NCBI GenBank assembly: GCA_021234155.1 | Contig: JAJEKV010000082.1 | Coordinates: 1,917,377-1,981,376 of the forward strand | DNA: 64,000 nt | From: Isoetes taiwanensis | Taxonomy: Eukaryota; Streptophyta; Lycopodiopsida; Isoetales; Isoetaceae | Reading direction: 5' to 3' | Part shown: in pieces, positions 2,351 to 40,859 of the stretch | Position numbering within the stretch: position 1 is the stretch's first letter | Layout of the letters: the number at the start of each line of letters is the position of its first letter | Notes under the pieces: generated by a model | The model's database searches: none | What the model was told of the DNA's origin: nothing | What the model saw: only the letters and a program-made list of their open reading frames with translations | Made by a program: the position numbers and the translations under genes

Positions 2351-2351
2351 A

Positions 2352-2665
2352 AATACAATGGAGAACATTCATTCTATATAACTGCATCCAATCACGTGGC
2401 AAGTAGTGCCTTTCTCCCGGAAAAGTCAAAGTACAACCATTCTCATTAGAATATGGTTGCATCCAATCACACACTGAAGCATACAAATGGTTTCGTCAAC
2501 GAGACAAGCAAGTCGAGAAAGGCCCAGGAAACCCAATGTACAACCATTATCATTATAGAATATGGCTGCATCCAGTCACACAAACAAACATACAAATGGT
2601 TTCATCAATAGGACAAAGCATGCCTTTCGACTCAGCGAGTCGAGAAAGTCAAAAAACTCAATGTA
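2352..2665 (+). repeat. Imperfect tandem array (about 3 units) with palindromes, 3' flank of element copy 1
   Basis: Words such as GTACAACCATT, AGAATATGG.TGCATCCA, TCACACA and ACAAATGGTTTC recur at about 2352-2430, 2431-2537 and 2538-2665, giving about three units of 80-130 bp. Two units end in a decayed palindrome: AAGCAAGTCGAGAAA near 2507-2521 and TTTCGACTCAGCGAGTCGAG near 2625-2645. The array lies just downstream of the stop of the minus-strand HAD-domain reading frame, so it is probably 3' flank of that element copy. Confidence 0.6.
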
Positions 2666-2732
2666 CAAGTATATTCATTACAAAATATAGTACATTTCTT
2701 CACGTTTTCTTTACAAGATTCACACAATTCGA

Positions 2733-4815
2733 CTATCCAAAGTAGAGGTCGCTCTTTTTATCACCAAAATATTTGTCGTCCATAGCTTTCATGATGGGCC
2801 GCTCTGGATCGACCTCCTTGAGGTTCTGGATAGTTCATAATCACATCGACCACAAGTATGGCAAACGGGGATTCCGCCAAGACAGAACGAGATTGAAAGA
2901 CAACCACCTATCCGTTTCATACTCTTACGGTCGATAACTCTTGGCAATGATTGTATTGTGCGAAGTTATGATAGCACTTGTAGGCGAGTCGTCTATGATC
3001 GAGTGTTGTGTTTGTTAAAGTCTGGTATGCTTCATAAACCCCGGCCCGGCCTTTTCACCATAATAGGCTTCCCCTTTGTGATGGCTGGATCGAGGTCTGA
3101 CACATGCTCGACCCTTTCATTTCCTCAAACAAACTTGAACATCAAAACTGGAAGGCTGAGAACACCAAGGACATTGATAATATTTTTCTTTGCCATACAA
3201 GACCATATGGCCACTTGGAATCCCCGTTCCACGCACCACTCAATAATCTCCTTTGCTTTAGGTCGAGGATACACGATTTTAGACCCCGTTTTTGTCGGGA
3301 TTTATGAAGTGTTAAGCTCAGGGACGTCTTTATCGTGGTATACTGCAGCTAATACTCCATTGAGGTCAAATATTATAAGCTCGGTGGGCCCCCTGGATCC
3401 CAGTTAGAGTTTGACTCTGACCAGATTTCTGATTGATCGGAATCCATATGCAGGATCATTATTTTTTCAGGTCCTTTGTTGCTGCCCGCACTGTCTTGCT
3501 CTTGACTGCCTTTCTTGGATCCAGTATCCTCCACGTGATGTGAACTGCCAGCAGATTCGTGTGATATTATCAATGATCCCGATTCCTTGCGGTCGATGTC
3601 CCTGGAATGATGAAAGACGTCAGATAGGAAACATTTTCTCGACTCACGAGTCGAGAAAAGAAAAAACTAAAGACTCGGAGGGTTTCTCGACTCGCGAGTC
3701 AAGAAACACTCCGAGAGCAAAGTGAACTCACCTCAATCTCAGACTCTCCAGAATTAGTTCGGCAGCGTTGTCATCTAAACCTTGGACATTGTCGTCTCCG
3801 TCACCTTTCTCTCCCTGGCTGTCAGGTTTGTCTTCGTCATCATCGTCCTTACTGCTTCCATTTGTCTTCCTCCCTTTGAAATGCTCATGAAGCAGGTCCA
3901 GGTAGGTTTCAACCATGTCCTTATTTCCAACCACGGATATAGGTTTCATTCCATACAGCATAGCCCCCTGAGAGAACAGGCCATTCATCTACCACTCGCA
4001 TACAATATGATCTTCCTCGACCAAGCTGGTTATGAAGTACTTGATAACTCTTGGCCAGATAGGAATTCTATGTATTGGACCTGTCGCACCATCAGTGCGA
4101 CTTTGTCTATCAATGGCACATCCTCCATAAATCTGCCGCCCTTCCAGGGTTCCATCTGCTCTTGAGAAATCATGAACTTGTCGAGATAGCAGTGTTCGCT
4201 AGACCACCACTTGTCCAGGTCTGCAGCCGATCTTGAAACCAAAACCAAAACTACATTGGCAAAACTTGGTGCCTTCGGCAGGCCAAGTCTACACTCATGT
4301 TCCAGTTCGTATATGGAATACAAGATCTTGTTGGTGAAGTTAATATCAGCTGCCCATTGTGACATAACAGTTGTCTGATTGCCCGGCATGCAAAAGATAA
4401 GGAAACTGAAAGTATCCAGCTCGGTCATGTCCAGATACGTCTTGTACCACTGCTCAATGTCAGGTTTTTCATAAAATAGAGTGGGGTCTTCAATCATATT
4501 CATGGCAAATAGTGCCACGGGCCCAGGTGCCAGTTCTAGATCACCAAACCCCTTGTGTCCCAAGGTTACCAGGAATGGAGGGGAGCTATCATCCGTCTTA
4601 AATGGGACCACCCCGAATCCAAGCTTCCTCTTCAGAATTGCCATAACACGTTCAGGGAAGGGGAGGGTTTTGACGTTACGCTTTCGCTTGGTGTTGATGT
4701 AGGGTTCACATAGACGGTTCAACTCCTTCATGTCTTCCTCATCAAGCGCAGCCTTCTCCTTATAATAATCAAATTCATGGCATGCATTGGAGGCAACATT
4801 GCAAAAAACCATCAT
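2733..4815 (-). pseudogene. Element copy 1: possible methyltransferase-like region plus HAD/FCP1-like domain, decayed
   Basis: Read on the minus strand. An open region from 4815 to about 4030 (261 codons) encodes a protein segment I do not recognise with certainty. After one stop it continues (about 3988-3733) as MNGLFSQGAMLYGMKPISVV and an acidic linker. The order of a hydrophobic strand followed by a Gly-rich turn could suit a Rossmann-type methyltransferase, but no catalytic motif is certain. A 130-bp intron (3602-3731, GT..AG) joins LESLRLR to DIDRKESGS in frame. After a one-base shift the frame reads ELIIFDLNGVLAAV (about 3394-3350), then YPRPKAKEIIEWCVERGF and VAIWSCMAKKN. This is the plant FCP1/NLI-interacting HAD phosphatase pattern, with DLNG in place of DxDG. 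A later IDDS-like remnant and the stop at 2733 complete it. Stops and frameshifts make it a relic. The ParB-like N-terminus seen in copy 2 is not found upstream, so copy 1 is 5'-truncated. Confidence 0.7.
3602..3731 (-). repeat. Intron of element copy 1 carrying two palindromes (word A)
   Basis: The minus-strand donor reads TTGAG|GTGAGT and the acceptor reads CATTCCAG|GGAC, and the flanking reading frame is preserved. The 130-bp intron contains two copies of the palindrome with core CTCGACTCGCGAGTCGAG: 3634-3658 (central base changed) and 3683-3706 (one arm mismatch). The same word fills the flanks of element copy 3 at 17.9-22.2 kb. Confidence 0.7.
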
Positions 4816-4819
4816 TCAT

Positions 4820-6035
4820 TTAAATTAGATTTATGTCAGGATTTTGGACCATTTTGGCACTGCAACTTTTTCCCGGGTTAGTAAATTTGCATCGAGAATG
4901 TGACTTTTTTTTTTATAACAGCACAACATGATTGCATTAAAAATTAAAAATATTTCACATATGCATGTTGAGTTACATATTGCCAATTACTTCTCAGAAG
5001 TGACCCCTAGAGATATCATAGCTTTCTTTTTTTTTCTTTTTTTTTTTGAAGAGACGGCAGTTTTTGTATTCATATGATATAACTTTACAGCACAAAAAAA
5101 ACCCTGAAGATTCAGGGAAAAAGATAAGAAACTGTTCTCAGAATATACAGTAAATGAAAAAAGTAGAGTACTCATCATGGAGTTGTTCAACATCTTCTTT
5201 GGGTCAACTTACTATAGGGAACAACCTTCTTCTGCTGAACCAAATACTATAGGACCTTCTCTATAAATTTCCACCACTAATCCACTTACTGGCTCAACTG
5301 CAACAGCTTCTGTTACCCTTATTGGCCAGATTTGGATTAAGCACAAGTAATAATTCCCAGTATCCTTTGAAGATTAGTAGGATAAATTGGACCAAAACCT
5401 GAATAGAAAAGAAGGACATATAGCCAAGTAATTGCCCAAACCTTATGCCTGAAGAGAACGCATTCCCATTGTAGAGGTAGCAGAGCTCCTAGCTCCCCAT
5501 GCTTCTGAATCCATTAAAATCCAACTAGACCACCAGCCCAACCCTAGAAGATGATCCAAAAGATGGTGCATTGTTGGCGAAACCTCTAGGTCATCATGCT
5601 TCCATACGGGCAAAGATTCAAGAACTAGCAGTCTACATAACCCTTCATCAGAAAGTGAAATCCAAGGTCTCCCGAAACTTGAATTTCAAGGTTTTTAATA
5701 CAATTTACCTGACCACATCTGCAAAGACACATGGAAATTCCCATATATACATAGAACATTTAAAGGGAAAGCAGTAATAAATGGAATAGGCTGCCACACT
5801 ATTCCTGAAGCTGCCACCTTCTTTTATGGATATGATTCTCTGCCTCCAAGCAGCCTAACCAATCAACAATCTAAATAATAGCAGAAGGTTACTCAGGCTC
5901 AAACAGTTATCTTGAAGCTAGTTAGGCTTAGAACAAGCCCAACCCACCAGACTACTCTCAGGGCCCAGTCTTAAATTATCAACTGTAATAAGGCACCAAA
6001 ACATTCTGCCATAATTTTCAAAAACTGACTAATCA
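4820..6035. other. No gene recognised
   Basis: AT-rich sequence with poly-T runs near 4908 and 5028-5047. No coding region, RNA gene or clear repeat unit could be supported. Confidence 0.5.
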
Positions 6036-6039
6036 TACT

Positions 6040-8850
6040 GCCATGGCTACAGAATCCTCACTTCCACAGGTATTGTAACCCTAGCAGTCTTGCCTGGGAT
6101 GACCTTTGGGGTCCATGAAAACAAAATAGTATCTAACTCAACCCAATCATCCCCTTCAATAGGGTTTCTCTTCCATCTCTTTGTCCAACAGTCTCTATAC
6201 ATTTCTTCCTCTGCCACTGCATTTAACTGATGCACTGGACACCACCACTCCACACGAACTTTGTTCACGTTGCGGTCACCTACTTCTTTGCAAACCTCTG
6301 AGATGGTGTAACCCATCCACACAGGGTATATCTCTTTGCGCTCTGGTACTATAAGTGCAAATTGATGGCAAAGCAAGTCATCTTTGGGATCATAATCCTC
6401 CAGCCCGAGATATTTAGGCCTTCCTTTCCTAGGACCAACATAGTGTTTTTCAGAATTTGGAGGAGCCATCGACTTCTTGAATACTACTAACCACATCATC
6501 AACTTCCTCGGGTGTTATCAAGTCTCTCCACCTAGTCTTAGGTAGCCATCCATCTTTCGGTTCATCGAGGAGGATGTGTCTACTTGTCCCAATAATCCAT
6601 GTACCGTGTCCAATAATCTATCAATGCAAGGTTGGTATCATTGGGGTTATTTTTCCAATACTTGACGATTTAAATGCCGGCCCAATGTGCTTTGCAATGA
6701 ATCCACCTCTGCAAAAGGCTTAAGAGCTTTTTGGTTGACCCCTTGGAATCTTAGGGTTTACCATTTTCATCTTCGTGCCATATAGGTACTCATTCATCGG
6801 CCTCTATTTATCATCCGAAGGTCTCATCTTCCATTGCATTATTGGCTTATTTCCCATGATCCGGAAAGTGTAATCAAGAGGTCTAGATTGACCTTCCATA
6901 TCAAGAGCATAACCTTCGATAAAAATTCTTCCAATCGGGCACCTCTTGTATGATCAACCCTATAGGAGAAGGTGAAATGCATTCACTAAGAACTTCTATT
7001 AGTCTAGGAAGATTGGTCACAGCTTTTGAGATTTCAAGCCAAGACTATACTTCCCAAACAATGCATCCACATCCTCATGAGTATGTCCGGGCATTAAGAA
7101 CCCTAAATTCACTCTTTCAAAGACACCCAAAGCTGTTAAATAAGATTGGAATGAGAACATATACTGTTTTTATTCTCGGCCCAAAGACAATTGTCAAGTT
7201 GGAGGAGGAACCTTGGTGGTAGATCTCGAGGTTGGGAACGTGAACTTGAGGCTCCAACATGTTCGTAAGCACCCGACTTCCTAAACCTTGCCTTAGTAAA
7301 CTTTTCTAAATTATTAGGCTTTCTATCCAACAATGCATCAAGAGTGGTTGGCTACCACCTCCGTGGTTGTGGAGGTCACCGTAATAACCACTCTCATAGT
7401 TCCTCAAGCACCTCATCACACTTCCAATATGAAAATCGGGACCATCACTCTACAATTGCAAACTAAAATGGCCATAATAAATTGGCACCGAGCCATGCAC
7501 TATTGCACTGTCGGAGAGACTTGCAAAGGATAAGCTCTATTGATTTGCTTGGGTATGTAACTATCTTTGTGGCAAACAAGTCTTCGATTGATCCATCTTG
7601 TCATGTATAATACAAACATAGTTATTGGGTTCCAAACACGATAATGTTCTCCACATCCAATAAATGGATCTGCATGATAGTTGGTCTGTCATGTGATCTT
7701 TCATTTGCTCTCTTATCTTAGCCCTTTGGCTTGGTTGCTTGGTCTTATCCAGAATCTCTTTCAACTTAGCACACAAGTTGCACTTTGCAAAGTTGTTCGA
7801 AGTGTGCTTGCTCCATAGTTCACCAAGCCGGGTTGAGATATTGCGGTGTAATGTAGTTCTCGAAGCAAAGCATTCACTTCCTCCAATATGCTCTTCTGGG
7901 TACAATGGGATGGCAATCTCTTCTCGACAACTATTTTTCCCTGTTGATCTTTCCTACTTTTATGTGGCATATTCTCAACATTGAATTCAACATATTTTTC
8001 AAAAACCTCCCTAGCAGTCAGGATCCTAGAAGTTGGCCTCAACATGCCATTATTTCCATGTAATGCAATTTTACTCCCCTTTGCATGACTTGCTTGCCAA
8101 TTTTGCCAAGATGAAATTGGAATGCCATGAATATATATCCATGCAACTTTACATATCCATGTCCCTAGCAGTGGGTATTTTTTTTTCTTTGGAAATTTTT
8201 CATCTTGAAGTGCAAGCTCATGAATGGAGTACATGTAAGTCCTCCCTCTCATCACAAGTATACTCTTGGAAGGTGGCTCTTGCTTCCACCAATTCATCAA
8301 TTTCAAACTTCCGAACACAATTAGCCCAACAACATTCCATTCCCTTACCTTAGTCGAGCTTCACGTGAACAATCACTACTTGACTTGGACCTCTTGCTAG
8401 GATAATGTTTCACCACCGAGTGTGCCCTCTTCTCAAAAATGTGGTCCCGGCAGCTATTGGAGGTGCATTAAAAAATCGGTGTCATCCATAACCTCCGGCT
8501 CGTAAAAGGAATTCTTCTATAAACTCAATGCGGGCTATAGGCCATGGCATGATGCATGGAACCTCCAATTGTTTAATACAAGCGATTGCAATCCTCGGGT
8601 GATTTGACCTTTTTCCTTCCATTTTTCTTCTAAACTTGTTATGGCCACACCCACTTTATCCTCTCCTAACCTTTCATCATTGACAGCTTGGATAGGATCA
8701 GCTAGTATGATAGTTCCTTCACCTACTAGCTCCTTATTGCATTGGTGCTTCACTTTCACCTTCTTATTCTTCCAATCCAACCCATCAGAGGATAATTTGC
8801 TTAGTAGACTCAGCCTCAACACCCTTTGGGTGGTCCACACCATTCACCTA
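6040..8850 (-). pseudogene. DUF7869-type transposase-like gene, copy B (relic)
   Basis: Minus-strand reading frames match the plus-strand relic at 23.5-26.3 kb in the same order. The N-terminal part at 8843-8535 contains VNDERLGEDKVGVA, against VNDERLGDDHLGVG in the other copy. The middle at 8318-7561 contains FAKCNLCAKLKEILDKT, DQLSCRSIYWMWRTL and CIIHDKMDQSKTCLPQR. The C-terminal part at 6502-6047 contains CHQFALIVPERKEIYPVWMG. The CxxC pair and the IIHDKMDQ strand (a candidate first catalytic Asp of an RNase H-like fold) are typical of the plant DUF7869 family, which I take to be transposon-derived. Multiple stops and frameshifts break the gene, and the HTH(D/E)DID segment seen in the other copy is not recoverable here. 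It is probably not expressed. Confidence 0.65.
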
Positions 8851-9099
8851 CAAGAACAATGTTTACAATGGGGTAACAATGTGATAAGAACATGTTGTAA
8901 CAATGTTGAAACATGTTGGGGGGGATAGGTATTACATTTTTACCCTTTTTAGGATCCACACGCTTCACCTATATAAAGTTAAATGTCTTAATATTAGTTC
9001 GAAAAAAGGACAAATTAAATTTGAGAATAGATTAAAGGGAACTTTAAAAAATACCAAAAAAACCATTAAATGGACAAATATATGTTGTAAGTGCAGCCA

Positions 9100-9335
9100 A
9101 AAATAGGTTGTAAGTATAGCTTAGGTGCAGGTAATTATGCAAAATTAATGATAACATAGGGTGTATGTTAGTAGTACTAATGAGGTAAGTATTGGTCGTA
9201 ATTCTAGATAGGCCAAAGTAGGTTGTAAGTATAGATGAGGTCTAGGTAATTATACAAAATTAATGACAACATAGGTTTTAAGTATAGCTCACATGTGGGT
9301 AATGCTATAGAGAATTAATGATAACCTAGGGCGTA
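9100..9335 (+). repeat. Imperfect tandem repeat, about 3 units
   Basis: The words TAGGTTGTAAGTATAG, AGGTAATTAT.CAAAATTAATGA and AACATAGG recur at about 9110, 9220 and 9270, giving three diverged units of 60-115 bp. There is no coding potential. Confidence 0.5.
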
Positions 9336-9530
9336 ATTAATTCAATAGATATGATTAGTATATGATGTGATGGATATAATTCGTATATGATGTGATGGAA
9401 TCATAATTACAACCGCACCTATACGAAACCTTGCATGTAACTACTATATCTTGCATGAAACCCTCCATTCCTTCAACCGCCCATCCTTTATTTCTTCTAG
9501 CGCCATTCTATCGCATTTTCTTCCTTACCA

Positions 9531-9982
9531 TGGTGAGCCATCTTTGCCCGCATCCCGCCCATCTCGGATGGACTCGCCTCCGAGAGGCGAAGAGGGAGAT
9601 CAGAAAACTGATCAAGAAATTCATTCCTCCATTCCGCAGATGCCGTTGTGGCTACCTTCCGCACCAAAGTCCGGATAATTGCGAGGAGTTGTTTCTTCAG
9701 GGTAAGCTTCGCCCTGGGAAGGAGTATCTCAGCACAAGCACTAGCAGCCCTGAGTCCCCCCATACACCAGCAGATTCTGATGAAGAGATGGAGAAGGAGG
9801 TTGAAAAAGAAGAAGAAATGGAGGAAGCAGATGAGGAGTGGCGAGAAGAGTTGGACGAAGAGAAGAAGCACATTTTAATGGACGCCCTCTCCTCCTCGGA
9901 TGATGAATTTACTGCAGAAGCCATTCTTGAAGAGATGGCAGATGAAAACTCAGAGGAAGAAGAGGAGGAGGTAGAGGGCTGA
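9531..9982 (+). CDS. Acidic hypothetical protein, possible first exon of an element-associated gene
   Basis: I do not recognise this protein. Starting at the ATG at 9531 (MVSHLCPHPAHLGW), it has a basic N-terminus (KREIRKLIKKFIPPFRRCRC) with a few cysteines. A short Ser/Pro/Thr linker (STSTSSPESPHTPADS) follows, then a strongly Glu-rich tail of about 70 residues ending EEEEEEVEG. A basic head with an acidic tail is compatible with a nuclear or DNA-associated protein, but composition alone cannot show this. A hairpin region carrying palindrome word B follows, then a coiled-coil-like exon at 10826-11044, so these may be parts of one gene belonging to element copy 2. An upstream in-frame ATG at 9431 would add about 33 residues. 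Confidence 0.4.
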
Positions 9983-10278
9983 TTTTCTTTGTTTGTTTTT
10001 GTTATTTAGTTTTTTGTTAAGAAAAGAGAGCTGGGCATCTCCAAAAAAGGCCTCAAATGATGATTATGAATGGAGCTAGGCATCTCCTTAAACTGCCTAG
10101 AACTTTTGTAATTTTGTAACACAGAGCTGGGCAACTCTAATAAAAGGCCTTATGTAAAAATTTTCAATGGCAATACAAGGATTTAATGACTGCAATATGT
10201 TTCTTTAGTGTCAACTCTAACTTAAAAGCATAACTGTAATTTCTTCGTAAGTTTGTTTTGAATTCGCTCTTTCATTCT

Positions 10279-10500
10279 TAATTTTTGAGAGAGCTGAAGT
10301 GAGATCACAAAGCGAGAAATATGTTTGTGTGCAAAATGTTTAAATTGTCAAGGTCAATACACTGGCATGAATTGCACTGAATTAGCTTTATGCAGTTCAC
10401 GCCAGGCGTGTATTGGACCTGTACAATGTAAACATTTTGCACACAAACATATTTCGCGCCTGGCGTGATTTCACTTCAGCTCTCTCATATTTAAAAATTA
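10279..10500. repeat. Long inverted repeat (about 70-bp arms) with palindrome word B
   Basis: The left arm (10279-10348) and right arm (10424-10500) are imperfect reverse complements, sharing GAGAGAGCTGAAGTGA and AAATATGTTTGTGTGCAAAA. The right arm holds an intact word-B core (CGCGCCTGGCGTG, 10451-10470), while the matching place in the left arm is eroded. The loop contains another copy (TTCACGCCAGGCGTGTATT, about 10395-10413). A further copy lies at 10521-10540. The region sits between two possible exons and may be intronic. Confidence 0.75.
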
Positions 10501-10672
10501 CAGTACAGCTTCTGAAGAAATTACACGCATGGCGTGAATTGCATACAGTAACTAGCTGTCGTATCTTAATATTTCCTAACAAAGACCTGCTAATTTTTTT
10601 AATGCATTAAATGAGTTTACAATTCATAAGACTTCTGCTAATGCCAGTACTGCATTTAAATTACAAATGAAT

Positions 10673-10787
10673 GGTATTCGCTCATGGCGCGAAATCACTA
10701 ATTTGTTTTTTCTCTCTAACTTACAGATTTATGAATTCGCGCCTGGCGCGTATTCAACTGAACATACGCCTGGCGCGTATTCAACTG
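10673..10787. repeat. Three further palindrome word-B copies
   Basis: Copies at 10675-10695 (TTCGCTCATGGCGCGAAAT), 10733-10754 (AATTCGCGCCTGGCGCGTAT) and 10763-10783 (ATACGCCTGGCGCGTATTC). The last two lie in near-tandem, each followed by CAACTGAA. Confidence 0.8.
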
Positions 10788-10825
10788 AAGTTCCTCCTGT
10801 GCCAGCATAGGCTACAAGCATAGGC

Positions 10826-11044
10826 TTATTCAATGAGTTGTGTCGTGCTCTGGAGGGGCTTGAAATTTAGAATGCTCAGCTGAGAATGAGAGTTGCAGAC
10901 CTCGAAGCCATTTTGGGTAATATCCCAATAGCTGCACCATCTTATTTGCCAGATTCTTGTGTGCTAGCTTATCTTGTTACAACAGCATTTGAGACTATTG
11001 TGCCAGCATTTGAGACTACTGAGGAACAACACACAGATGAATAA
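10826..11044 (+). pseudogene. Short coiled-coil-like exon fragment
   Basis: The plus-strand frame reads LFNELCRALEGLEI, one TAG, then NAQLRMRVADLEAILG and a short tail ending EEQHTDE before a stop. The heptad-like Leu/Ile/Val spacing suggests a coiled coil. The stop may be a CAG-to-TAG change. It lies 3' of the palindrome cluster, so it may be the last exon of the gene beginning at 9531. No family is recognised. Confidence 0.3.
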
Positions 11045-11214
11045 CACATAGACGTAATTAAAACAATGTAAATAGTGTCTAGTGTTTGTTAAATTCCTGA
11101 ATGGTCTGGTCTGCAGGCCTTATAGTTTTGAAATTTTGAATGAATGGTCTGGTATGCAAGCGTTTTAATTTCATACATATGACAGAATCAGCTTGTGTAT
11201 CTTAGTATAAGCAC

Positions 11215-11675
11215 TCAATCTACTTTTTTTGATGTATCTTCCTCTATGTCTTCCAAGAAAATGAAACTCACCTTCTTTAAGCGAATTACTGGCCATGCAA
11301 CAAAGGTTCCGATGCTTTCACCCACTGTGTCTCCATCAGGATGCCTTCTGGGTAATGCTTCGTCGTTGAAATGGCAACTGGTTACTAGAATCTTCACATG
11401 ATCATTTCCAAGAGGAACTCCATGGCAGATTGCTTCCGGATCGACTGATTCTATCTTGCAATTTCCCACCCTCCTCTTCAAATTCGTCGTCAGCATGTAA
11501 CATTCTTCTCCAACGCTGTCCAATGTCGCAAGATCATGGGATTAATTTGGAGCTTGGGATCTGGAAGAGTAGATGAATTTACATGAAGGCGCTCGACATC
11601 GCTTAGGCGCCGGCTTCTTCCCAGTTCTTCCGAGTTCTTCCTGTTCTTCCAAGTTCTTTCGAGTTCGAATGACAA
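11215..11675 (-). pseudogene. DUF8039-like fragment of a plant transposon-associated protein
   Basis: The minus strand encodes HGVPLGNDHVKILVTSCHFN and then GDTVGESIGTFVAWPVIRLK. This pattern (a Pro-Leu-Gly strand, a short linker, then D-x-V/L-G-x-x-I/V-G-[ST]-F-[IV]-x-WP) matches a small domain often found in plant transposon-encoded proteins and annotated DUF8039. Only about 100 residues are recovered, without a transposase catalytic core. It runs opposite to the surrounding element copy 2, so it may be a separate insertion or an unrelated gene fragment. The 5' portion (to about 11675) overlaps a simple AGTTCTTCC-type repeat and is probably not coding. Confidence 0.45.
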
Positions 11676-11847
11676 GAAAGGCTGGCGGCAAGATTAGGTG
11701 GTGGTTTCAAATTATCCGTTAATTGTACTGCTTTTTTAGCCGCTGAGTGAAATCTAATTGTGAGATTTCACAATACGGCGGTCGTAGAGCCATTTACTGC
11801 TCGTACGATCGCGTCCCGTCCATTAGGCCCAATCGTAAGATTGCTGA

Positions 11848-11990
11848 CCGTCGATTAAAAGTCGATCCGTGAAATTTAAATAACCGCTCGCTTCTATCGG
11901 ACCGTCGATTAAAAATCGATCCGCGAAATTTAAATAACCGCTCGCTTCTATCGGACCGTCGATCAAAAGTCGATCCGAATGAAACCCGTC
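11848..11990 (+). repeat. 54-bp tandem repeat, about 2.6 units
   Basis: The unit begins GACCGTCGATTAAAAGTCGA and ends ACCGCTCGCTTCTATCG, repeated at about 11848, 11901 and 11955 (last unit partial). Each unit contains a small inverted repeat, TCGATTAAAAGTCGA. It lies just upstream of the likely start of the element copy 2 gene. Confidence 0.75.
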
Positions 11991-13249
11991 GATCGAAAGC
12001 CGACCTACTCGGCTTATGGAAATCTATATAAGTTTTTGAATGTCATTTCTTGCTTTTTGATTGCCGACTTGCTCCGAGATGCTCAAGAACTCCGAGGCGC
12101 TCAAGAACTCAAGAACTCCGAGGCGCTCATCGCGAAGATGCCGCCCAAAGGTCGTGCTGCTCCAAACTCAGGCCGGGCCACGAGAGAAGATGCTCAAGGT
12201 CAGTATTGTCATCATTTTGTGTGTCATTCATTCATTGTTCATTGCTCTGATTAGTGTGCAGTGTTTGCTCTGTATTTACTGTCAATAAATCTTCTGCCTA
12301 TACTCCTGTCTATTATTTCTGTAGCAGTGACTTAAATTTCTATAGCTGCTCACACTCCTATCTATCATTTCTTTAGCTGCTCATTTCTACAGTGACTTGA
12401 ATTTGCATCTGCATAATTAATGTCCTTCCTGTGTTAAATTGTCCTGCTCGTGATTAACTATTCTGTCTATAATTTGTCCACCTGTGTGTAAAGTAGTATG
12501 ACCGTGTTTAGTTGGCCTGCCTTCGAGTGTCTGTTTGGCCTGCTGTAATTGGCACGCCTTATGAGTGCATGTCTGTAATTGGCGATTGTATGCCATTCTG
12601 TATTTTAGCCTGGCCGGAATGGATGGCCACTCGAAATCGCGCTAAGCGTGTATTGCACCCTCGTTTGCAGGGAAGAAGAGACAAAACCGATTGGTAGTTC
12701 ACCTCCTCCTAAGAAAGCAAGAGGCTCGGAAGATACTCCAGCGAGCTCCAGCTTACAGAAGAAGGGAAAGCCTAATGAGGATGCAGTATCCTATGCATTG
12801 TCGATGGATGATAGCGGATCCATTATCAGAGCAGACACAGATCCTCCATGCCCTGAGGAGAAGATGGATGACGGAGTGGTATGTTGATGTAGGCAAAACA
12901 AATGGTAAGGTGGATCTTGTGTTACACTCCAGGAAGAAAGAGACCGATCTTATGAAGAAACAAGGTATTCTTATCACTTGTGAGGAGCAGGATGACATAT
13001 GTTGTCAACTCCTAGTGGAGATTGTGAAGAACCACAAGAAAGATCTCGTCAGATTTACACATGCCAGGGCAACTGCTTTCAAAGATGGTCTGATGAAGAA
13101 GGACGTGAGTGCTGAGTCATGTTTCAAGTATGGATGGCCTCAAAATACTGTCCTCACTCCAGTTTCTATTAGTGAAGGGGTGTCTGCAGTGAGGAGAGCT
13201 TTGCGAGGACCTTCTCCAAGTTACTACCTGGAAGAGTTGAAGCATTAAA

Positions 13250-13815
13250 ATGATATCAGGAAGATTGCTGGACTTAGGAAAGGACATCCCAGCTGCAACA
13301 GTTGATGGCATTTTGGCAGAAAATGACTCCGAAAAGAAATCGCAGCTGGAGGCAATGAGTAGGCTAGTCAAGTATGCAGACAACTACCCACTTGGTCAAT
13401 CTTTTACACATCCCATCCATGTTGACCGTCTGGTGAGATCACATAAGTCAAGTCTTGTAGCAGGAGGTATGACCCTGAGCATGCTAGAGAAATCTTGAGG
13501 GCGATGGTGAGGAATCCAGGCCAAGTTCCTATGCCAGCAGACGTGCTTCCTTGGGATAAGAAAAAGGATGCTCCACTCCAGTGGACAACACTAGAGGAGC
13601 TTACAGTGGAGAACCCTAATGTATGCTTCCTTATTATTGACGGACAACATTCTATTGAGGCACAACGATCCCTATCCAACTAGGCTAAGCAAACAGGACA
13701 AACAATGTATCTGCTACATTAACCACAGGAGGTGTCGGTTTCTAAGCCCCCATACCCCTGCAGAGGAGCTGGCAGAGATTAGTGCAACATTGAACGAAAT
13801 GGGCGAAGTCTTATA
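13250..13815 (+). other. ParB/DGQHR-like domain of element copy 2
   Basis: The two hallmark blocks are FTHPIHVDRLVRSHKSSLVA (the INPxHVxR-like recognition block of ParB-type N-terminal domains) and, after a one-base frameshift at about 13467, FLIIDGQHSIEAQR (the DGQHRIxA block). A third stretch near 13735 reads RRCRFLSPHTPAEELAEISA in another frame, as expected of the segment after the DGQH block. ParB-type domains bind or hydrolyse nucleotide and act on DNA in bacteria. In eukaryotic transposon-like contexts their role is unclear. Confidence 0.55.
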
Positions 13816-13930
13816 AAAGGTTAGTATATTAGGTGGAATAGAGTCAGATATATCAAGTAGGAATAACAGTAGTAGACTAGGTCCAGCGTGTGTCAAGGCA
13901 TGCCAATTCGCGTCAAGTAACTTTCCATGC

Positions 13931-13971
13931 TGCCAATTCGCGCCTGGCGTCACGCCAGGCGCGAATTGGCA
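13931..13971. repeat. Perfect 41-bp palindrome (word B pair)
   Basis: Two 20-base arms (13931-13950 and 13952-13971) are exact reverse complements around a single base. Each arm contains AATTCGCGCCTGGCGT. This is the longest perfect palindrome I see in the window. Confidence 0.95.
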
Positions 13972-13985
13972 ATGTACTGCAGGCA

Positions 13986-14213
13986 CGAATTGGCTGCATG
14001 AATACGTGCCTGAAGCATTTTGATCAGACAGTACATTGCCAATTCGCGCCTGGCGCGTATTCATGCTGACAATTCGCGGACAAATACACGCCAGGCGCGA
14101 CGAATTGGCAATGTACTGCCTGATCAAAACGCTGCATTGCCAATTCGCGCCTGGCGTGTATTCGTCCGCGAATTGTCAGCATGAATACATGCCACGCGCG
14201 AATTGGCATGCCT
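13986..14213. repeat. Nested long hairpins built from palindrome word B
   Basis: Two overlapping inverted repeats exist. In one, 14012-14063 pairs with 14083-14133, sharing TTTTGATCAG.CAGTACATTG. In the other, 14036-14105 pairs with 14141-14211, sharing TGCTGACAATTCGCGGAC. They cannot both form at once. Every arm contains one or two AATTCGCGCCTGGCGCG-like words. The block interrupts the coding segments between the ParB-like and central regions, so it is probably intronic. Confidence 0.85.
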
Positions 14214-14289
14214 GGCTTTGACATTTCCTGATTATCCTATTTGCTTGATCTAAAAAGCGGTTAATTTTTATATGCCCTGCTCATATTGG

Positions 14290-14862
14290 CTGACATGCTT
14301 TCCTTACACGTGCAGCCCTTACGTGGAAGAACTCCGTCATGCCCACCAGCAATGGATAGAATATGGAAGACCCCTGCAAACAAAACAGGGAGGAACGAAG
14401 TCTGAGGAGTTTAAGGCATTGGAAAAGACCTTGGCTCAGACTATCATCCAAGATAAGAAACCAAGGGCAAAAAAGACAGAAAAAAAAACTGGGGAGGAAG
14501 CGGTGAGGCGCCCCAGGCGGCTTCCGGAGGTCCTACAGATGCCTACAAGATCGTCTTCGCTAAGGACTAAGTCCGGGCGAAGTGGAACGAAGTTACAGGA
14601 TGCTTATGCTCGTAAAACGACTACCGGACCCAATGGGAAGAGTGCCTCCTCAAGATACTTCAATATTTGATCTCAAGACTACCGAGATGAGGAAAGTACA
14701 GGGCCTTCAAGATGATGAAATCATTTGGTTGTTAAATCAATGCATAAACAAAGAAGTTCTGTACAAGAAGGCTTCTTCAGTTAAGGACAAAATGTCCTTC
14801 ATTGATTGTTGCACTCATATAAATAACATCACGCGAAGTTATGAAGGTAGCGATTGGTGAAG
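14290..14862 (+). other. Conserved central region of element copy 2 (also in copy 3)
   Basis: Segments (spread over frames by a shift and a stop) read VEELRHAHQQWIEYGRP, then DAYKIVFAKD/VRAKWNEVTG, then DLKTTEMRKVQGLQDDEIIW and INKEVLYKKASSVKDKMSF. The minus-strand copy 3 has DQYDLILSTEAVWEKWTEI, FDKQFMKRIQGLTDKETLDL and LDGTILLRKSRSSKLQDAK at the same relative places. Conservation at protein level despite DNA divergence indicates a once-functional domain. I do not recognise its family. Confidence 0.55.
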
Positions 14863-16284
14863 AACTTCGGGAAGCTATCCGGTGATGTAACATTATCTGA
14901 AGTCGGCCTGCTAGACAAGTATGGCGTGTCTGGCGATGACATCAAGAAATACGTCTTTTGGTCGAAGGAATTTTCGCAAAACAGAAATCAAAGAACCAAT
15001 GTAAAGACACCGCAAAGCTATCGATAAGGTGATGGTGAGCTAAGAAGAAAGGTTGCCGCCCTAAAAGATGTTGGTGGTGACTTACCCGCACTCCAATACC
15101 CGGTCTCTACCGGCTATAAAGGTCTCCTACCCGATACAACAATAGGCCCTCATAATATTTCTCTGTTTGTATTGGATAGCGGGGACTAAAAAGGAGAGAA
15201 GGGGATGACTCAACAGGGAGTACATCGGTTTTTTAGTAGCCGCATAGGCTTAACAACTTCGAAGCTCTTTCTTGTTGTCATCATATGCCCCCTGGGGAGA
15301 GCCTCATATGCATGCTTTGGTGGCTTCATACGACTTGGAATGCCTAAAGGTCGTTAGGGAAGGTTCTCTTCTCTTTGAGACAAAGGATCTTGATTTGAGG
15401 ATGCGGTTTAAAAGCGCTTTGTATAATCTTCATAATGATATCCTTGTGCGGATGATGGCACTATGAGGTAGCTAAGAGCAAAGGGGCATCGGATAAAGGT
15501 GCATGGCAGTGTTTTCTTTTGGATGAACCCAACTTGAAAAATGTCTTCTACAAAGCGGATGATGAGGATGAAGCAAATGGCGAGGAATTTGATGTTCCTA
15601 ACCCTCACCGGAAAGACATCACTCTGGAATTGCCGACAAAAGAAAAAGGGGCCCTTGAATAAACATGGGTTTGCAATCAATCGGCTATCTTCTTGAGGCA
15701 TTTGCACCACTTGATACCACACTGCCGTGGAATTGCATGTTGGAGGGTATATTGGTAGAGAGGCCCGAAGACATCAAGAAGATATTTAAGTTTAAATCAA
15801 CGATGACCAGTCCAGGATTTCCTTGAAGTGTTTTTGAAAAAGGTACTAGCCTTTGTTGATTGGGGTCCCATCAAAGATAAAACCCGTTGGCTTTGGTACC
15901 TTACAAAGGGCGTAAGGCACTACTAGTTCACAAAAGCCTCCAAGTGCAACTCCGGAATGTTCAAAAAGCAATGCAACCCCGAGGAGAAGGCGAAATGCTA
16001 GCGGGAACGTGAGACCTTGGAGAAAAATATGAAGTCCATGCTTGATAACATTGCAACCGGTAATGTCCAAATTTTGGGGTACGATCTATGGTAGTTCCTG
16101 ATACCAGCCAGGATGATCATGCAAGCTCAGATGCAACTATTGAGGTTATGAATCAAACCCCTGTGGTAGCTTTCATAGAAGAGAACGTGTCCGAACTAAA
16201 CCGTGGAGTTCATGCTTCTGACAGTAAGCATCCGGGGAGTGAAGTAGACGCTACGACTGCTGGGGATGACGGCGACGATGAAAG

Positions 16285-16393
16285 GTAATTCACGCCAGGC
16301 GCGATATGTAGCTTATTTATGAAGGATAAAACGCGCTTGGCGTGTATTGCAGACCACTTTTGCATGGCTAACTCTTTGTTTTCCATGGTTCAG
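16285..16393 (+). repeat. Intron of element copy 2 carrying two palindromes (word B)
   Basis: The exon boundary reads GATGAAAG|GTAATT and the acceptor reads GGTTCAG|GGCTCC. Splicing restores a frame reading DDER-APPACDKIIVFDLNG. The 109-bp intron holds two word-B palindromes: 16290-16312 (TTCACGCCAGGCGCGATAT) and about 16330-16350 (ACGCGCTTGGCGTGTATT). Element copy 1 has a comparable intron at the comparable place, but filled with word A. Confidence 0.8.
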
Positions 16394-17283
16394 GGCTCCA
16401 CCGGCTTGTGACAAAATCATTGTCTTCGATCTGAATGGTGTCCTTGTGTAAAACATTTCCTAAGAAGCTTATTAACAGGGATGACTTCGAGCAAGTCCCT
16501 CTAGAATCGAATACTAAGTGGATCTATCGTCGTCCACACTTAGAAGATATGATGAATGAGGCATTCAGATTGTTTCGAGTTGCCATCTGGTCCTCAATGG
16601 AACGCAGAAATGTTGATGAAGTACTTAGGGTGTTACCAGGCATGAATCGAGACTTTGTGACAATTTGGGACCAAAGTAAGTGTATAAAGTTTCCACATCC
16701 AAGAGATCCGGATGCAAACCGGTCTTCGTCAAACATCTTAGTACTATGATGGATCAGTTTGGCATTCAAAAGAAAGAAGACATCATAATAGTAGATGATG
16801 ATACTCTTAAGTGCTTTTATAATCAAAGTCAGGCTCTAAATCCACCAACTTATACTCCACAAGATTACTCAACAGATGAGTTTCTAGTACTATTCATGTC
16901 CATCATGAGTGGCTTGGCTGCTGGTAAAACAGTATCAGATGTTGTCAAAACGCATCCAGAACTAGATCGGACTAAGGAGATGGATCCCTATCTTGAGAGT
17001 TATTTGACAAAGAAAGGACTAGTCCCTCCATGATGTAATCTTCATATCAAGTGAATACAATGTAAAAAGTGTTCTGTGTATATTGATGTATTGTTATCTA
17101 CAAATGCTAATCAAACACCACATTCTTCTCCTAAAACAAGAAAATGTTAAACTACCCACTACTACAATGCAAAAATTTGCAGCAATGCAAAACAACATGT
17201 TACACAACACTATATTGAGAAAAGGGTATGCAAAGGTGGCGTGCTTTTGGAACAGACATAAATCCAATTTAAATGAATGATGG

Positions 17284-17845
17284 TTAAAACTCTGTGTTGC
17301 CTTCTTCCAATGCACGCCGTCTCTTTAGGATTGTGGCGTAATCCTTTGCATCCTGCAATTTTGAACTTCTGCTTTTCCTTAGCAGGATTGTTCCATCCAG
17401 GATTCTGCCCTGTAGATCAAGCGTTTCCTTGTCTGTCAGGCCCTGTATCCTTTTCATGAATTGCTTGTCGAACAACTTTGGGTCCGGCCTGGCTGGCAAT
17501 TCTCCATTGCTGTCCTTCAGCTTGCATCTTGTCCATTGATCCCATATCTCAGTCCATTTCTCCCAGACCGCCTCAGTGCTAAGAATGAGGTCATATTGGT
17601 CTGATAGAGATTCCCTGCCCTTTCTTGGTGTTCTCTTCTTCTTCTCGTCTTCATCCTCTCCCTTATCATCTTCCTGGCCTTCCAGAAGAACATATCTACA
17701 GAGTTTCTCGAAGGTCTTCCACTTATCGGAGGGGGCCCTGTTTCCTTTAGGACGCTGAGGACAACCCAATGCTTTTCACTGTTGCCGAGCGTGTATGATC
17801 TAGTCAGGATACGGGATGCATTCAGTAAATGTCACAATGTCAGAG
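17284..17845 (-). pseudogene. Element copy 3: central region fragment
   Basis: The minus-strand frame from 17769 to 17284 (161 codons) contains SDKWKTFEKLCRYVLLEGQE, an acidic/basic linker (DDKGEDEDEKKKRTPRKGR), DQYDLILSTEAVWEKWTEI and MKRIQGLTDKETLDLQGRIL. It is homologous to the central region of copy 2 at 14.5-14.8 kb. Just upstream another frame reads RSYTLGNSEKHWVVLSVLKE, so a frameshift lies near 17760. Its 3' end lies only 250 bp from the 3' end of copy 2, tail to tail. Neither the ParB-like nor the HAD part is found for this copy. Confidence 0.6.
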
Positions 17846-17894
17846 CATGAAAGTATCTCCTAACACCCGAAGGAAAAAATAAATAGAAGAATGC

Positions 17895-18700
17895 AGGGGG
17901 TTTCTCGACTCGCGAGTCGAGAATAACCACAGGAGAGGAGAAAACATAGGAGAGTCGAGGCGAGGCGAAAGCATCAGCGCATTCCCAAATCTTTGCTTTC
18001 CGCCTCTTGAGCGATGCAACTTAGGATATAAACTAAGCGACATTGCCGAAGAGGCGGGGAAAGAAAGATTGGGAAGGCTTCGATGCTTTCACTCTTCAAC
18101 CATTAATCTCTAATGTTTCTCTCTATTTATTTGGACTTTTCGACTTCCTTGAGTCGGGGAAAGTCGAGGAGTTACTGAGGAGAGGAGAAGATCGAAGGGA
18201 CTTTCTTGATTTCATGAAGTCGAGAATACCCACAGGAGAGGAGAGAACATAGGAGAATGAAGGCCAGAGTGAAAGCACCGCTCATTCCCAAATCCTTGCT
18301 TGCCCCGCCTCTTCGAACGATGCAACTTAGGATATAAACTAAGCGACATTGCCCGAAGAGGCGAGGGAAGAAAGGATGGGAAAACTCGATGTTTTCACTT
18401 TCGTCAGCCAATAATCTCTAATATTCTCTCTATTGCCCTGGGGTATCTCGATTTGAAAGTCGAAAAGAAGAAGCGGGGAAAGTCGAAGTATGAAGGGACT
18501 TTCTCGACCCGCGAGTCGAGAGTCGAAAGCCCCCTTCATCTTGTTTCTTCCGTTTATTCTCGGCTTTCGGCTTCATGAATCGAAGAAAGTCCCTTCAATC
18601 TTTATTTTTCTTTACTTCTCAGGGTTTCGACTCGAGTCGAGAAAGCCCCCATCTTCGATTTCTGTGTTCCTCGGCTTTCTCGACTTCGAGGAGAAACCCC
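17895..18700. repeat. Copy 3 flank: about 303-bp tandem duplication with word-A palindromes
   Basis: Two diverged units (about 17920-18222 and 18223-18470) share ACCCACAGGAGAGGAGA, CATTCCCAAATC.TTGCTT and GCAACTTAGGATATAAACTA. Within each unit, GCCTCTT and AAGAGGCG flank that last block and form a stem. Word-A palindromes are at 17901-17922 (perfect core), 18137-18169 and 18201-18227 (eroded), 18500-18521, 18625-18644 (shortened) and 18675-18697. No coding sequence is supported. Confidence 0.75.
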
Positions 18701-18719
18701 GAATCGAGCGATTAATTTA

Positions 18720-19253
18720 CCTTATGTAGGCGGCACTAACGCTATTGTTCGACGATGGCTAATCTTTGGCGAGCTCCGTTGGTGGCGTGTCGTGAAAGAA
18801 CTCTGCACTCTCGTTTGGAATATCTGTCCTTGATCGCTGCGGCACTTCCTTTTACATGCGCAATACTTGCGCTGCCCTCACTGAATGCTGGCCGTCCACA
18901 ACCCAAAAACGACATCTTTTCCCTTCAGGTCTTCCTCGGACTTCCGGTGAACAACTCGCGATTCGATCTGGCTGAATGGTATGACATCCGGAGCATTGGA
19001 TCTGCAGCGGGATGCCGCACCATCAAGTTCGAAAGAATCTCCGGCATGTCTTGCCGGATTAAATTCCCTTTGGTTGAACAAGGCGGCATCTCACAGTGCA
19101 AACCCGCGTCGATGTCGGCCGGCGGCTTGTGTGATATCCCCAATGGATATCTTGAGCTAGCCGCTCCATCTTCTGGGCCCCTCTCTGTGATTTCCTAATC
19201 TACTCATCTGGATCCAAGAATTGGGAGTCGACCATATCTTCCTCATCTTGACA
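18720..19253. other. No gene recognised between copy 3 blocks
   Basis: There is an open plus-strand frame (18755-19198, 147 codons) and overlapping antisense frames of similar length, but none shows a known domain or homology to the other element copies. I treat it as non-coding or decayed. Confidence 0.35.
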
Positions 19254-20187: not shown

Positions 20188-20189
20188 GG

Positions 20190-21115: not shown

Positions 21116-21119
21116 CCTC

Positions 21120-21960: not shown

Positions 21961-21989
21961 CCTGCGACCGGACACAGGGGCATTGGCTG

Positions 21990-22165: not shown

Positions 22166-22169
22166 GTTC

Positions 22170-23160: not shown

Positions 23161-23164
23161 GTGG

Positions 23165-23400: not shown

Positions 23401-23547
23401 GTGCTCTTTCATTCAGGGAGCATGTGAGATGAGCAAAATGGAGCCAAGGAAGCCCAGCACAGGACATTGCCCTAGGCTCCAATGGAGGAAGATGGCACGC
23501 TTATTGTTGCACCCTTGCAACGAGGCGGTATTTTGAGAGGGCATCAT

Positions 23548-26345: not shown

Positions 26346-26349
26346 ATGA

Positions 26350-40855: not shown

Positions 40856-40859
40856 AGCA

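What the first reader, a model, noticed from the sequence alone, without database searches (positions are those of the whole stretch)
2733..17845. A repeated element encoding ParB/DGQHR-like, unknown central and HAD/FCP1-like domains
Three loci share coding homology at protein level: 12139-17033 (+), 2733-4815 (-) and 17284-17845 (-). Copies 1 and 2 share the HAD/FCP1 domain (IIFDLNGVL, VAIWS). Copies 2 and 3 share the central region. Copy 2 also has HPIHVDR and IDGQHSIEA blocks typical of ParB-type domains. I know of no described plant transposon class with this domain set.
Basis: partly seen in the sequence, partly recalled or inferred. Interest (0 to 1): 0.88.

Follow-up and report, generated by a model that had tools for sequence, protein, structure and literature searches.

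The report
Jumping genes carrying ParB and methyltransferase
A lycophyte genome holds many large jumping genes that carry, next to their presumed transposase, a second gene built from a ParB-like domain and a bacterial-type DNA methyltransferase, with private palindromic DNA sites; the window holds two worn-down relatives, one nested inside the other.

Summary
The repeated element is real, but it is not three copies. The window holds two nested DNA transposons: an outer one (1519-26555, 4-bp TSD TGTT) interrupted by an inner one (4807-17285, 31-bp TIR, TSD AAAA). Both elements carry a DUF7869 gene (presumed transposase) and, divergently, a long accessory gene: N-terminal domain, ParB-like DGQHS block, central domain, NIF/FCP1-type HAD. 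The central domain is probably a worn-down DNA methyltransferase. Related DUF7869 elements of this genome (by size, Isoetes taiwanensis) encode ParB-like plus an intact-looking CcrM-like N6_N4_Mtase (E 5e-15). Top DUF7869 and methyltransferase hits form 24 pairs within 20 kb (0.5 expected), 22 divergent. Five families each carry their own palindrome or inverted-repeat array at corresponding places of the accessory gene, absent from the others; two 22-bp palindromes occur 4212 and 7435 times, reversed controls 0. Proposed function (inferred): the accessory protein binds, and in intact families methylates, these parS-like sites to control its transposon. No such system turned up in the papers searched.

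The parts
1519..26555 (.). Outer DNA transposon (interrupted by the inner element 4807-17285; 12,554 bp without it and one AAAA)
   Evidence: TIR AAGCA(C/T)TATTTAATTAAAGTGGGTC at both ends, flanks TGTT/TGTT; 39 further loci of its gene among 40 scored
1515..1518 (.). Outer target-site duplication TGTT, left (right copy 26556-26559)
   Evidence: flanks printed
1519..1543 (+). Outer terminal inverted repeat, left
   Evidence: 25 bp, 1 mismatch to the right end
26531..26555 (-). Outer terminal inverted repeat, right
4807..17285. Inner DNA transposon (12,479 bp; two other copies 11.2 kb)
   Evidence: 31-bp TIRs at both ends; right end at the same base in 12 of 16 copies compared, left end in 2 of 3 copies followed upstream
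4803..4806 (.). Inner target-site duplication AAAA, left (right copy 17286-17289)
   Evidence: uninterrupted outer copies L030 and L031 have one AAAA at this point
4807..4837 (+). Inner TIR left, AACCATCATTCATTTAAATTAGATTTATGTC
   Evidence: 1075 genome matches at up to 2 mismatches, reversed control 0
17255..17285 (-). Inner TIR right
5029..6054 (.). About 1 kb in the window copy that is absent from the two copies read there (secondary insertion)
   Evidence: L025 and L026 run from 5028 straight to 6055
6125..8708 (-). Inner DUF7869 gene, presumed transposase (broken in the window copy; 589-aa open frame in copy C1031)
   Evidence: PF25273 DUF7869 E 5.2e-32 on the C1031 copy; mapping
11846..11977 (.). 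54-bp direct tandem repeats between the two divergent genes of the inner element
   Evidence: seen in copies compared
12138..12197 (+). Inner accessory gene, exon 1 (MPPKGRAAPNSGRATREDAQ)
   Evidence: exon limits read from frames only
12646..13813 (+). Inner accessory gene: N-terminal domain and ParB-like domain (HPIHVDR, IDGQHSIEA)
   Evidence: 403-aa open frame in copy C1018; best NCBIfam hits DGQHR E 0.12 and 0.16, below cut-off; codon-position-3 ratio 2.27 over 16 copies
13896..14213 (.). Inner inverted-repeat array (TGCCAATTCGCGCC...GGCGCGAATTGGCA) between the ParB and central frames
   Evidence: 8 sites in the window copy, 3 and 6 in two others, none in the other families examined
14314..16108 (+). 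Inner accessory gene: central domain, probably methyltransferase-derived, without DPPY motif
   Evidence: alignment with outer and L034; profile match to the intact MTase at motif I, hhalign E 0.0097, probability 4.2%
16398..17030 (+). Inner accessory gene: NIF/FCP1-type HAD domain (FDLNGVL, VAIWS, VDDD)
   Evidence: PF03031 E 3.2e-15 on the C1031 copy, map
2763..3382 (-). Outer accessory gene: HAD domain (IIFDLNGVL)
3731..4806 (-). Outer accessory gene: second part of the central domain (frame break near 4096)
   Evidence: corresponding frame open in copy L030
17290..17775 (-). Outer accessory gene: first part of the central domain, cut off by the inner insertion
   Evidence: 420-aa frame runs across the rejoined site
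18830..19090 (-). Outer accessory gene: ParB-like block, approximate limits (VVDGQHSVRAA at 18896)
   Evidence: another copy aligned
19558..20223 (-). Outer accessory gene: frame with the N-terminal domain (WYVEVSTSGKEKD)
   Evidence: resemblance to the inner WYVDV block seen by eye
23537..26201 (+). Outer DUF7869 gene, presumed transposase (broken in the window)
   Evidence: 26-43% identical to the inner one by stretches, best E 7e-60; GHTHDDIDAFF at 25255
17902..22159 (.). 7 of the 10 copies of the outer 22-bp palindrome TTCTCGACTCGCGAGTCGAGAA: 17902, 18501, 21572, 21996, 22054, 22077, 22138
   Evidence: up to 3 mismatches; 0 in 100 shuffles
1667..3705 (.). 3 further copies of the outer palindrome: 1667, 3636, 3684

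Best explanation
Shown: two DNA transposons of one kind, nested. Each has terminal inverted repeats beginning AA(C/G), a 4-bp target-site duplication, a DUF7869 gene on one side and, divergently, a long accessory gene. The accessory protein has an N-terminal domain, a ParB-like block, a central domain and a C-terminal NIF/FCP1-type HAD. In related elements of the same genome the corresponding gene encodes ParB-like plus an intact-looking class-beta amino-methyltransferase. Each of five families carries its own palindrome or inverted-repeat array, before the methyltransferase/central frame and in some families also upstream. Inferred: the DUF7869 protein is the transposase that cuts and pastes the element. 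The accessory protein recognises its family's palindromes through the ParB-like part, as ParB recognises parS, and in intact families methylates adenine in or near them. This marks the element's own DNA and controls its genes and transposition, comparable in role to TnpA of Spm, VANC of VANDAL or Dam control of IS10 (recalled parallels). In the two window families the methyltransferase has lost its catalytic motif and a HAD domain has been added. There the protein would act as a DNA-bound regulator, and since the HAD has DxN instead of DxD it may be a weak or dead phosphatase used for protein contact.
For: Ends and TSDs: (six element copies read at both ends; five give an exact 4-bp duplication, one gives 5 bp). 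Same architecture in inner and outer. DUF7869 5.2e-32. N6_N4_Mtase 5.4e-15; PDB best CcrM 1.9e-10, then MboIIA, RsrI, DpnA. ParB-like 4.5e-6. Divergent linkage: 24 pairs within 20 kb against 0.54 expected, 22 divergent, 17 of them 4.9-6.2 kb apart. Palindromes. Coding constraint on the ParB exon.
Against: No binding, methylation or transposition has been measured. The ParB assignment of window-type copies is sub-threshold. No Pfam model matches the outer central exon or the motif-I part at E 10, nor the inner central exon at E 1. The link of the central domain to the methyltransferase rests on a short motif-I match (hhalign probability 4.2%, E 0.0097) plus L034 (PF01555 E 0.18). By pairwise tblastn the window-type proteins barely find the other families: best are DUF7869 in L034 (3e-6), then E 0.03-0.1. 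So the shared origin of the accessory genes rests on layout, motifs and that profile match. The fold attempt failed (pLDDT 36.8). Codon-position bias is weak in the central exon (1.35) and not significant in the motif-I part, the HAD and the two-copy DUF7869 comparison; one spacer control shows 1.30; most indels in the copies break the frame (ParB exon 51 of 54). L037 showed no recurring palindrome. Palindromes could be hairpins without a protein partner. That DUF7869 is a DDE transposase has no PDB support.
Confidence: 0.6

Rival explanations
1. The accessory gene is passenger cargo: a captured bacterial ParB-methyltransferase gene that DUF7869 transposons carry along, with no part in transposition, decaying in the inner and outer families.
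For: Methyltransferase core degenerate in the two window families; weak codon-position signal in the central and HAD exons and mostly frame-breaking indels; many copies broken.
Against: Gene kept with the same order and orientation in inner and outer families that are 25-43% identical and, by layout and motifs, in further families; ParB exon shows strong codon-position-3 excess; family-specific palindromes at corresponding places.
Confidence: 0.2
2. The palindromic arrays are unrelated to the protein: hairpin-prone repeats or small foldback elements that accumulate in introns of these transposons.
For: Inner arrays are long imperfect inverted repeats that vary in number between copies; two of the palindromes occur thousands of times in the genome; L037 shows no recurring palindrome.
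Against: Five families have five unrelated sequences at corresponding places; regular 42-bp or 27-bp spacing in two families; clusters also upstream of the gene in some.
Confidence: 0.25
3. Ordinary host gene family (FCP1-like phosphatases) that happens to be repeated.
For: HAD domain matches PF03031, and plants have host genes of this family (recalled).
Against: TIRs, TSDs, an empty site and a linked DUF7869 gene; copies scattered on many contigs.
Confidence: 0.02
4. A virus-derived or Polinton-like element, not a cut-and-paste transposon.
For: Size 11-12.5 kb, several genes, a prokaryote-like methyltransferase and ParB; sub-threshold hits of accessory pieces to a phage connector (PF05352 E 0.011; PDB 7pv2 E 0.034) and to TLP-20 (E 0.089), which I read as chance.
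Against: No relative of the L032 methyltransferase exon or of the inner DUF7869 segment in viral contigs; no virus-type family over its cut-off among the frames tested; 4-bp TSD with short TIRs.
Confidence: 0.03

Closest known systems
Eukaryotic DNA transposons with 4-bp TSD, in particular the Sola superfamily (Repbase; Bao et al. 2009 recalled, paper not held)
   Same: Short TIRs, 4-bp TSD; Sola is, from memory, said to occur in plants and to give 4-bp duplications
   Different: Whether DUF7869 is the Sola transposase could not be tested, as no reference sequence was held; no accessory ParB-methyltransferase-HAD gene is known to me for Sola
DIRS retrotransposons with Dam-like adenine methyltransferases; DNMT-bearing retrotransposons of Symbiodinium and Klebsormidium (PMC5890265, abstract and passages)
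   Same: A mobile element of a eukaryote encodes its own DNA methyltransferase; the same paper mentions DNA transposons with a DNMT in marine viruses
   Different: Retrotransposons, or viral DNA transposons; enzymes Dam-like or C5-cytosine; the word ParB does not occur in that text
Bdelloid N4CMT (PMC8885841, abstract and passages)
   Same: Bacterial-type amino-methyltransferase active in a eukaryotic nucleus
   Different: Host gene with chromodomain that acts on transposons; here the enzyme is encoded by transposons and follows a ParB-like domain
CcrM / MboIIA / RsrI / DpnA N6-adenine methyltransferases (PDB hits)
   Same: PF01555 core, motif I (D-A-F-S-G-S-G-T-T), motif IV-like DLPY/DIPY in L040/L032
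   Different: Downstream of a ParB-like domain, split into frames read as exons, transposon-borne; degenerate in the window families
ParB/DGQHR superfamily (phrog_1033 ParB-like, TIGR03187)
   Same: GG(T/N)HS-K-AR or DGQHS block, followed by LTDEEAK--A--HN in L032/L035; neighbouring palindromic site arrays as in parABS
   Different: Very divergent; no ParA partner noticed; DNA binding and CTP use not tested
NIF/FCP1 phosphatases (PF03031; UBLCP1 3shq best PDB hit, E 0.059)
   Same: HAD motifs, WS and DD blocks
   Different: DxN in place of DxD at the first motif; part of a transposon gene

Membership tests
DNA (class II) transposon with TIR and TSD | Terminal inverted repeats and a fixed-length target-site duplication | tested here: met
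   Three families; TSDs AAAA, ATTC, TGTT, CTAC, AGTT (4 bp) and AAATT (5 bp) in six copies
DNA (class II) transposon with TIR and TSD | Empty site without the element in a paralogous copy | tested here: met
   L030 and L031 cross the insertion point of the inner element; not tested for the outer or third family
DNA (class II) transposon with TIR and TSD | Encodes a DDE/D transposase | tested here: inconclusive
   DUF7869 5.2e-32 and conserved acidic motifs seen by eye; no PDB support, no fold made
Sola superfamily | Sola transposase and its terminal signature | not testable with these tools
   No Sola reference sequence or model was at hand; the defining paper is not held
N6_N4 DNA methyltransferase (PF01555), related elements | Match over the curated cut-off | tested here: met
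   L032 exon 5.4e-15, 56.4 bits against 26.7; of 1443 genome candidates 150 were scored, all 150 over cut-off; L035 piece no match
N6_N4 DNA methyltransferase (PF01555), window copies | Match over the curated cut-off and a DPPY-type motif | tested here: not met
   no DPPY in the alignment; motif-I resemblance only. So: probably derived from, not a working member
ParB-like (ParB/Srx/DGQHR) | Profile match | tested here: inconclusive
   L032 phrog_1033 4.5e-6; L035 phrog_723 0.4; window-type copy TIGR03187 0.12, below cut-off; Pfam best for L032 DUF6551 0.0091, below cut-off; no PDB ParB match
ParB-like (ParB/Srx/DGQHR) | Binds palindromic parS-type sites near its gene | not tested
   Family-specific palindromes are present; binding needs an experiment
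NIF/FCP1 HAD phosphatase (PF03031) | Match over the curated cut-off | tested here: met
   3.2e-15, 56.6 bits against cut-off 21.8, on the C1031 copy of the inner element
NIF/FCP1 HAD phosphatase (PF03031) | Catalytic DxDxT/V motif | tested here: not met
   DLNGVL in the window inner and outer genes, DVNGVL in L031: second Asp is Asn

The most novel reading that the evidence does not exclude
A large group of plant DNA transposons carries a self-contained recognition system: a ParB-like protein joined to a bacterial-type adenine methyltransferase, paired with a private parS-like palindromic array that differs from family to family. With it each family marks and controls only its own copies, a transposon-borne counterpart of plasmid partition and Dam-type methylation control inside a eukaryotic nucleus. 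The window families show a later stage in which methylation was lost and a HAD domain gained.
Probability: 0.4. Interest if true: 0.92.

Novelty: new variant of a known kind. Interest (0 to 1): 0.8.

Why it matters
Eukaryotic mobile elements that carry DNA methyltransferases are few, and those met in the papers seen here are retrotransposons, apart from a mention of DNA transposons in marine viruses. A cut-and-paste type with a ParB-like domain, a methyltransferase and matching palindromic arrays would be a new regulatory strategy. It would give a testable source for adenine (or N4-cytosine) methylation in an early-diverging land plant, and it makes cognate protein-site pairs predictable from sequence. 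It also gives PF25273, a 'domain of unknown function', a place as the likely transposase of a very abundant element type.

Tried and rejected
Three independent copies: rejected, since the outer gene is split by the inner element. Host gene family: rejected (TIR, TSD, empty site). Viral origin: no relatives of the L032 methyltransferase exon or the inner DUF7869 segment in IMG/VR. Phage relatives: the L032 ParB block gave only 2 records at E 2; the methyltransferase exon gave 1439 records, best E 9e-6, so the enzyme is bacterial-type but no particular donor is indicated. Pfam, PHROG and PDB searches of the window-type ParB block found nothing usable. The fold of the outer central exon had pLDDT 36.8 and was not used. 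HAD link tested by co-location: of 150 listed PF03031 matches 1 lies within 20 kb of one of 20 inner places (of the 42 rows) and 0 near the 40 outer places. The list is dominated by other, better-scoring NIF genes, so this does not support the link; the HAD link rests on the inner and outer genes themselves. Sola membership could not be tested. Rows left out: L034 and L037 are not in the methyltransferase alignment A1 (L034 is in A2; no methyltransferase was seen in L037), and L033 is not in A1 or A3. The outer HAD was not scanned against Pfam.

Full report
WHAT IS IN THE WINDOW. The window lies in a genome of 1,658,258,908 bases in 1110 contigs. The published Isoetes taiwanensis assembly has 1658.30 Mb in 204 scaffolds plus 909 contigs (PMC8566536, abstract and passages), so I take it to be this lycophyte (inference). 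A DNA search with 12139-13500 scored 40 of 451 candidates and gave 42 matching rows, 29 of them covering the whole query, 84-96% identical apart from the window itself. Of 16 copies compared with the window, 12 end at the same base, 17285. Of three copies fetched further upstream, two show the left end at 4807 and one breaks off at 7909. Both ends carry the same 31-bp inverted repeat. The TIR pattern with up to 2 mismatches occurs 519 times forward and 556 reverse, the reversed control 0 times. Flanks read at both ends: AAAA/AAAA (window), ATTC/ATTC (C1031), AAATT/AAATT (C1018).

NESTING. 'Copies 2 and 3' of the finding end exactly at the two ends of this element. In two other genomic copies (L030, L031) the sequence runs directly from window position 17286 to 4806 with a single AAAA. 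So the inner element jumped into one gene of an older element. That outer element has its own 25-bp inverted repeats at 1519 and 26555 and the duplication TGTT/TGTT. With the two flanks joined in a script, a 420-aa frame runs across the junction. Of 1351 candidates for the outer gene 40 were scored: the window's own and 39 others, 87-95% identical.

GENES. Inner and outer elements have the same layout: a DUF7869 gene reading towards one end and a long accessory gene reading towards the other. DUF7869 (PF25273) matches the C1031 copy with E 5.2e-32, and the outer counterpart is 26-43% identical to the inner by stretches, best E 7e-60. The genome has 9902 first-look candidates for DUF7869, of which 150 were scored and all 150 exceed the cut-off; 0 of 14 control genomes ring (the controls named are bacteria and archaea, so they say nothing about plants). 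I call it the presumed transposase because no other candidate gene was seen in the elements; this is inference. The accessory gene has exon 1 (MPPKGR...), an N-terminal domain, the DGQHS block, a central domain and the HAD; exon limits are read from frames only. Inner against outer: central 24.5% identity, E 6.6e-18; HAD 32.7%, E 2.6e-12. The HAD of the C1031 copy matches PF03031 (E 3.2e-15) but the motif is DLNGVL, so the second catalytic Asp is Asn.

WHAT THE CENTRAL DOMAIN IS. The window-type copies gave no family match. I therefore chose six of the 150 listed DUF7869 loci and fetched 8 kb on the divergent side. All 6 hold at least part of an accessory gene: ParB-like and methyltransferase pieces in L032, L033, L035 and L036; a degenerate methyltransferase in L034 (next to a second DUF7869 fragment inside that stretch; its ParB block was not identified); only the N-terminal domain in L037. 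L032 and L033 are one family, L035, L036 and L040 another. The L032 3' exon matches PF01555 N6_N4_Mtase with E 5.4e-15 and phrog_67 with 5.8e-15; its ParB-like block matches phrog_1033 with 4.5e-6. The methyltransferase of L040 has ADLPYG and VLDAFSGSGTT, and its best PDB matches are N6-adenine enzymes: CcrM (1.9e-10), MboIIA, RsrI, DpnA; named N4-cytosine enzymes follow at 0.014. L034 has IVLDFFSGGAFSRASLHVGR at the matching place. The inner (HIGGYIGREALKTSRR) and outer (WYMNGLFSQGAMLYGM) proteins align there, and profile comparison of intact and degenerate groups finds this stretch as its only match (E 0.0097, probability 4.2%). Pairwise tblastn of the window-type proteins against the six loci found little: DUF7869 in L034 (3e-6) and otherwise E 0.03-0.1. 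So the central domain of the window families is probably a methyltransferase that lost its catalytic motif; this step is likely, not proven.

LINKAGE IN THE WHOLE GENOME. PF01555 has 1443 first-look candidates, 150 scored and 150 over cut-off. Among the top 150 DUF7869 and top 150 methyltransferase places, 24 pairs lie within 20 kb (0.54 expected for even scatter), 22 of them divergent, 17 of these 4.9-6.2 kb apart. A third family (L032/L033) is bounded by its own imperfect inverted repeats with duplications CTAC (C1034) and AGTT (C919); the DUF7869 place lies between the ends in both copies, with about 3 kb in the middle not fetched. Over six copies of three families, five duplications are exactly 4 bp and one is 5 bp.

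PALINDROMES. The outer element has a perfect 22-bp palindrome TTCTCGACTCGCGAGTCGAGAA, 10 copies in the window (at most 3 mismatches), all inside the outer element, 0 in 100 shuffles; 6 and 13 copies (at most 4 mismatches) in L030 and L031; 7435 sites in the genome at up to 1 mismatch, reversed control 0. L032 and L033 have AGTATGAATTCATACT three times each, L034 a different palindrome 22 times in clusters, L036, L040 and L035 (CAA)AGTGTATTCCGGAATACACT(TTG) 5, 7 and 1 times, and the inner element long inverted repeats. In the 14 sequences examined no family's motif occurs in another family. L037 showed no recurring palindrome. In the families where the ParB block was found, sites lie between it and the methyltransferase or central frame, in stretches I read as introns; in L034 five sites lie just before the central frame. 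L034, the outer element and contigs C23, C50 and C97 also have sites further upstream. AAGTGTATTCCGGAATACACTT occurs 4212 times at up to 1 mismatch, control 0. The listing shows the first 50 exact sites, on contigs C1 to C97. Of the 7 top-150 methyltransferase hits on those contigs, 6 have such a site 1.1-1.7 kb away and 1 (C29) has none within 6 kb; of 2 DUF7869 hits there, 1 has a site at 2.1 kb. Of 17 spacings under 300 bp, 12 are 41-42 or 83-85 bp, about four or eight helical turns. In L040 seven sites sit 42-43 bp apart.

SELECTION. Over 16 inner copies against copy C1031, changes by codon position in the N-terminal plus ParB exon are 125, 120, 278 (ratio 2.27). Central exon 1.35, motif-I part 1.21, HAD 1.23, DUF7869 1.47 (2 copies only); three spacer controls gave 1.30, 0.70, 1.50. 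So only the ParB exon stands clearly above the controls. Most indels break the frame, 51 of 54 in the ParB exon, so most copies are decaying. Divergence is 0.029-0.045 in exons and 0.034-0.078 in spacers.

HOW IT PROBABLY WORKS. Best model: DUF7869 moves the element. The accessory protein docks on its family's palindromes in its own gene and upstream of it and, where intact, methylates them, acting as a self-recognising regulator. The HAD of the window families would be a later addition. The binding, methylation and regulation steps are inferred. Rivals: passenger gene; hairpins without partner.

KNOWN OR NEW. DIRS elements with Dam-like enzymes, DNMT-bearing retrotransposons, and a mention of DNA transposons with a DNMT in marine viruses are known (PMC5890265, abstract and passages), as is a bacterial-type methyltransferase in rotifers (PMC8885841, abstract and passages). 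N4-methylcytosine in Marchantia sperm was seen only as a title in a reference list. Searches for DUF7869, ParB/DGQHR with transposon, ParB with adenine methyltransferase, and transposon-borne adenine methyltransferases found no description of this element (listings). The library holds only open-licence papers, so this is not proof. DUF7869 elements may already be filed in Repbase, possibly as Sola (recalled), so I rate this a new variant of a known kind.

Noticed in passing
window 39332-40921 (-): 529-aa open frame with a Replitron HUH endonuclease domain (PF21859, E 7.7e-19), a transposon type described only in recent years (recalled)
   Followed up: no
window 42231-43961 (-): DDE_1 transposase (4.7e-24) with Psq and Tc5 DNA-binding domains in two adjacent frames: a pogo/Tc1-type element next to the Replitron gene
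   Followed up: no
window 9530-9982 (+): Third open frame of the inner element: basic N-terminus, very acidic C-terminus (MVSHLCPHP...), also present in copies C1031 and C1018; function unknown
   Followed up: no
window 11846-11977: 54-bp tandem repeats (GACCGTCGATTAAAAGTCGATCCG...) between the two divergent inner genes, also seen in copies compared
   Followed up: partly
G000, many contigs: PF03031 NIF phosphatase domain has 3261 first-look candidates in this genome (150 scored, all listed rows over cut-off), more than the few dozen I would expect of a plant from memory; some may belong to other transposon families
   Followed up: partly
window 37446-37824: GC-rich tandem array of about 60-bp units (GTGATCCCGGAGGAGGGGATCACC...), palindromic in part by eye
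   Followed up: no
L034:2177-7800: 22 copies (up to 4 mismatches) of a palindrome near AAATGGCGCAGCTGCGCCATTT, often 27 bp apart within clusters
   Followed up: partly
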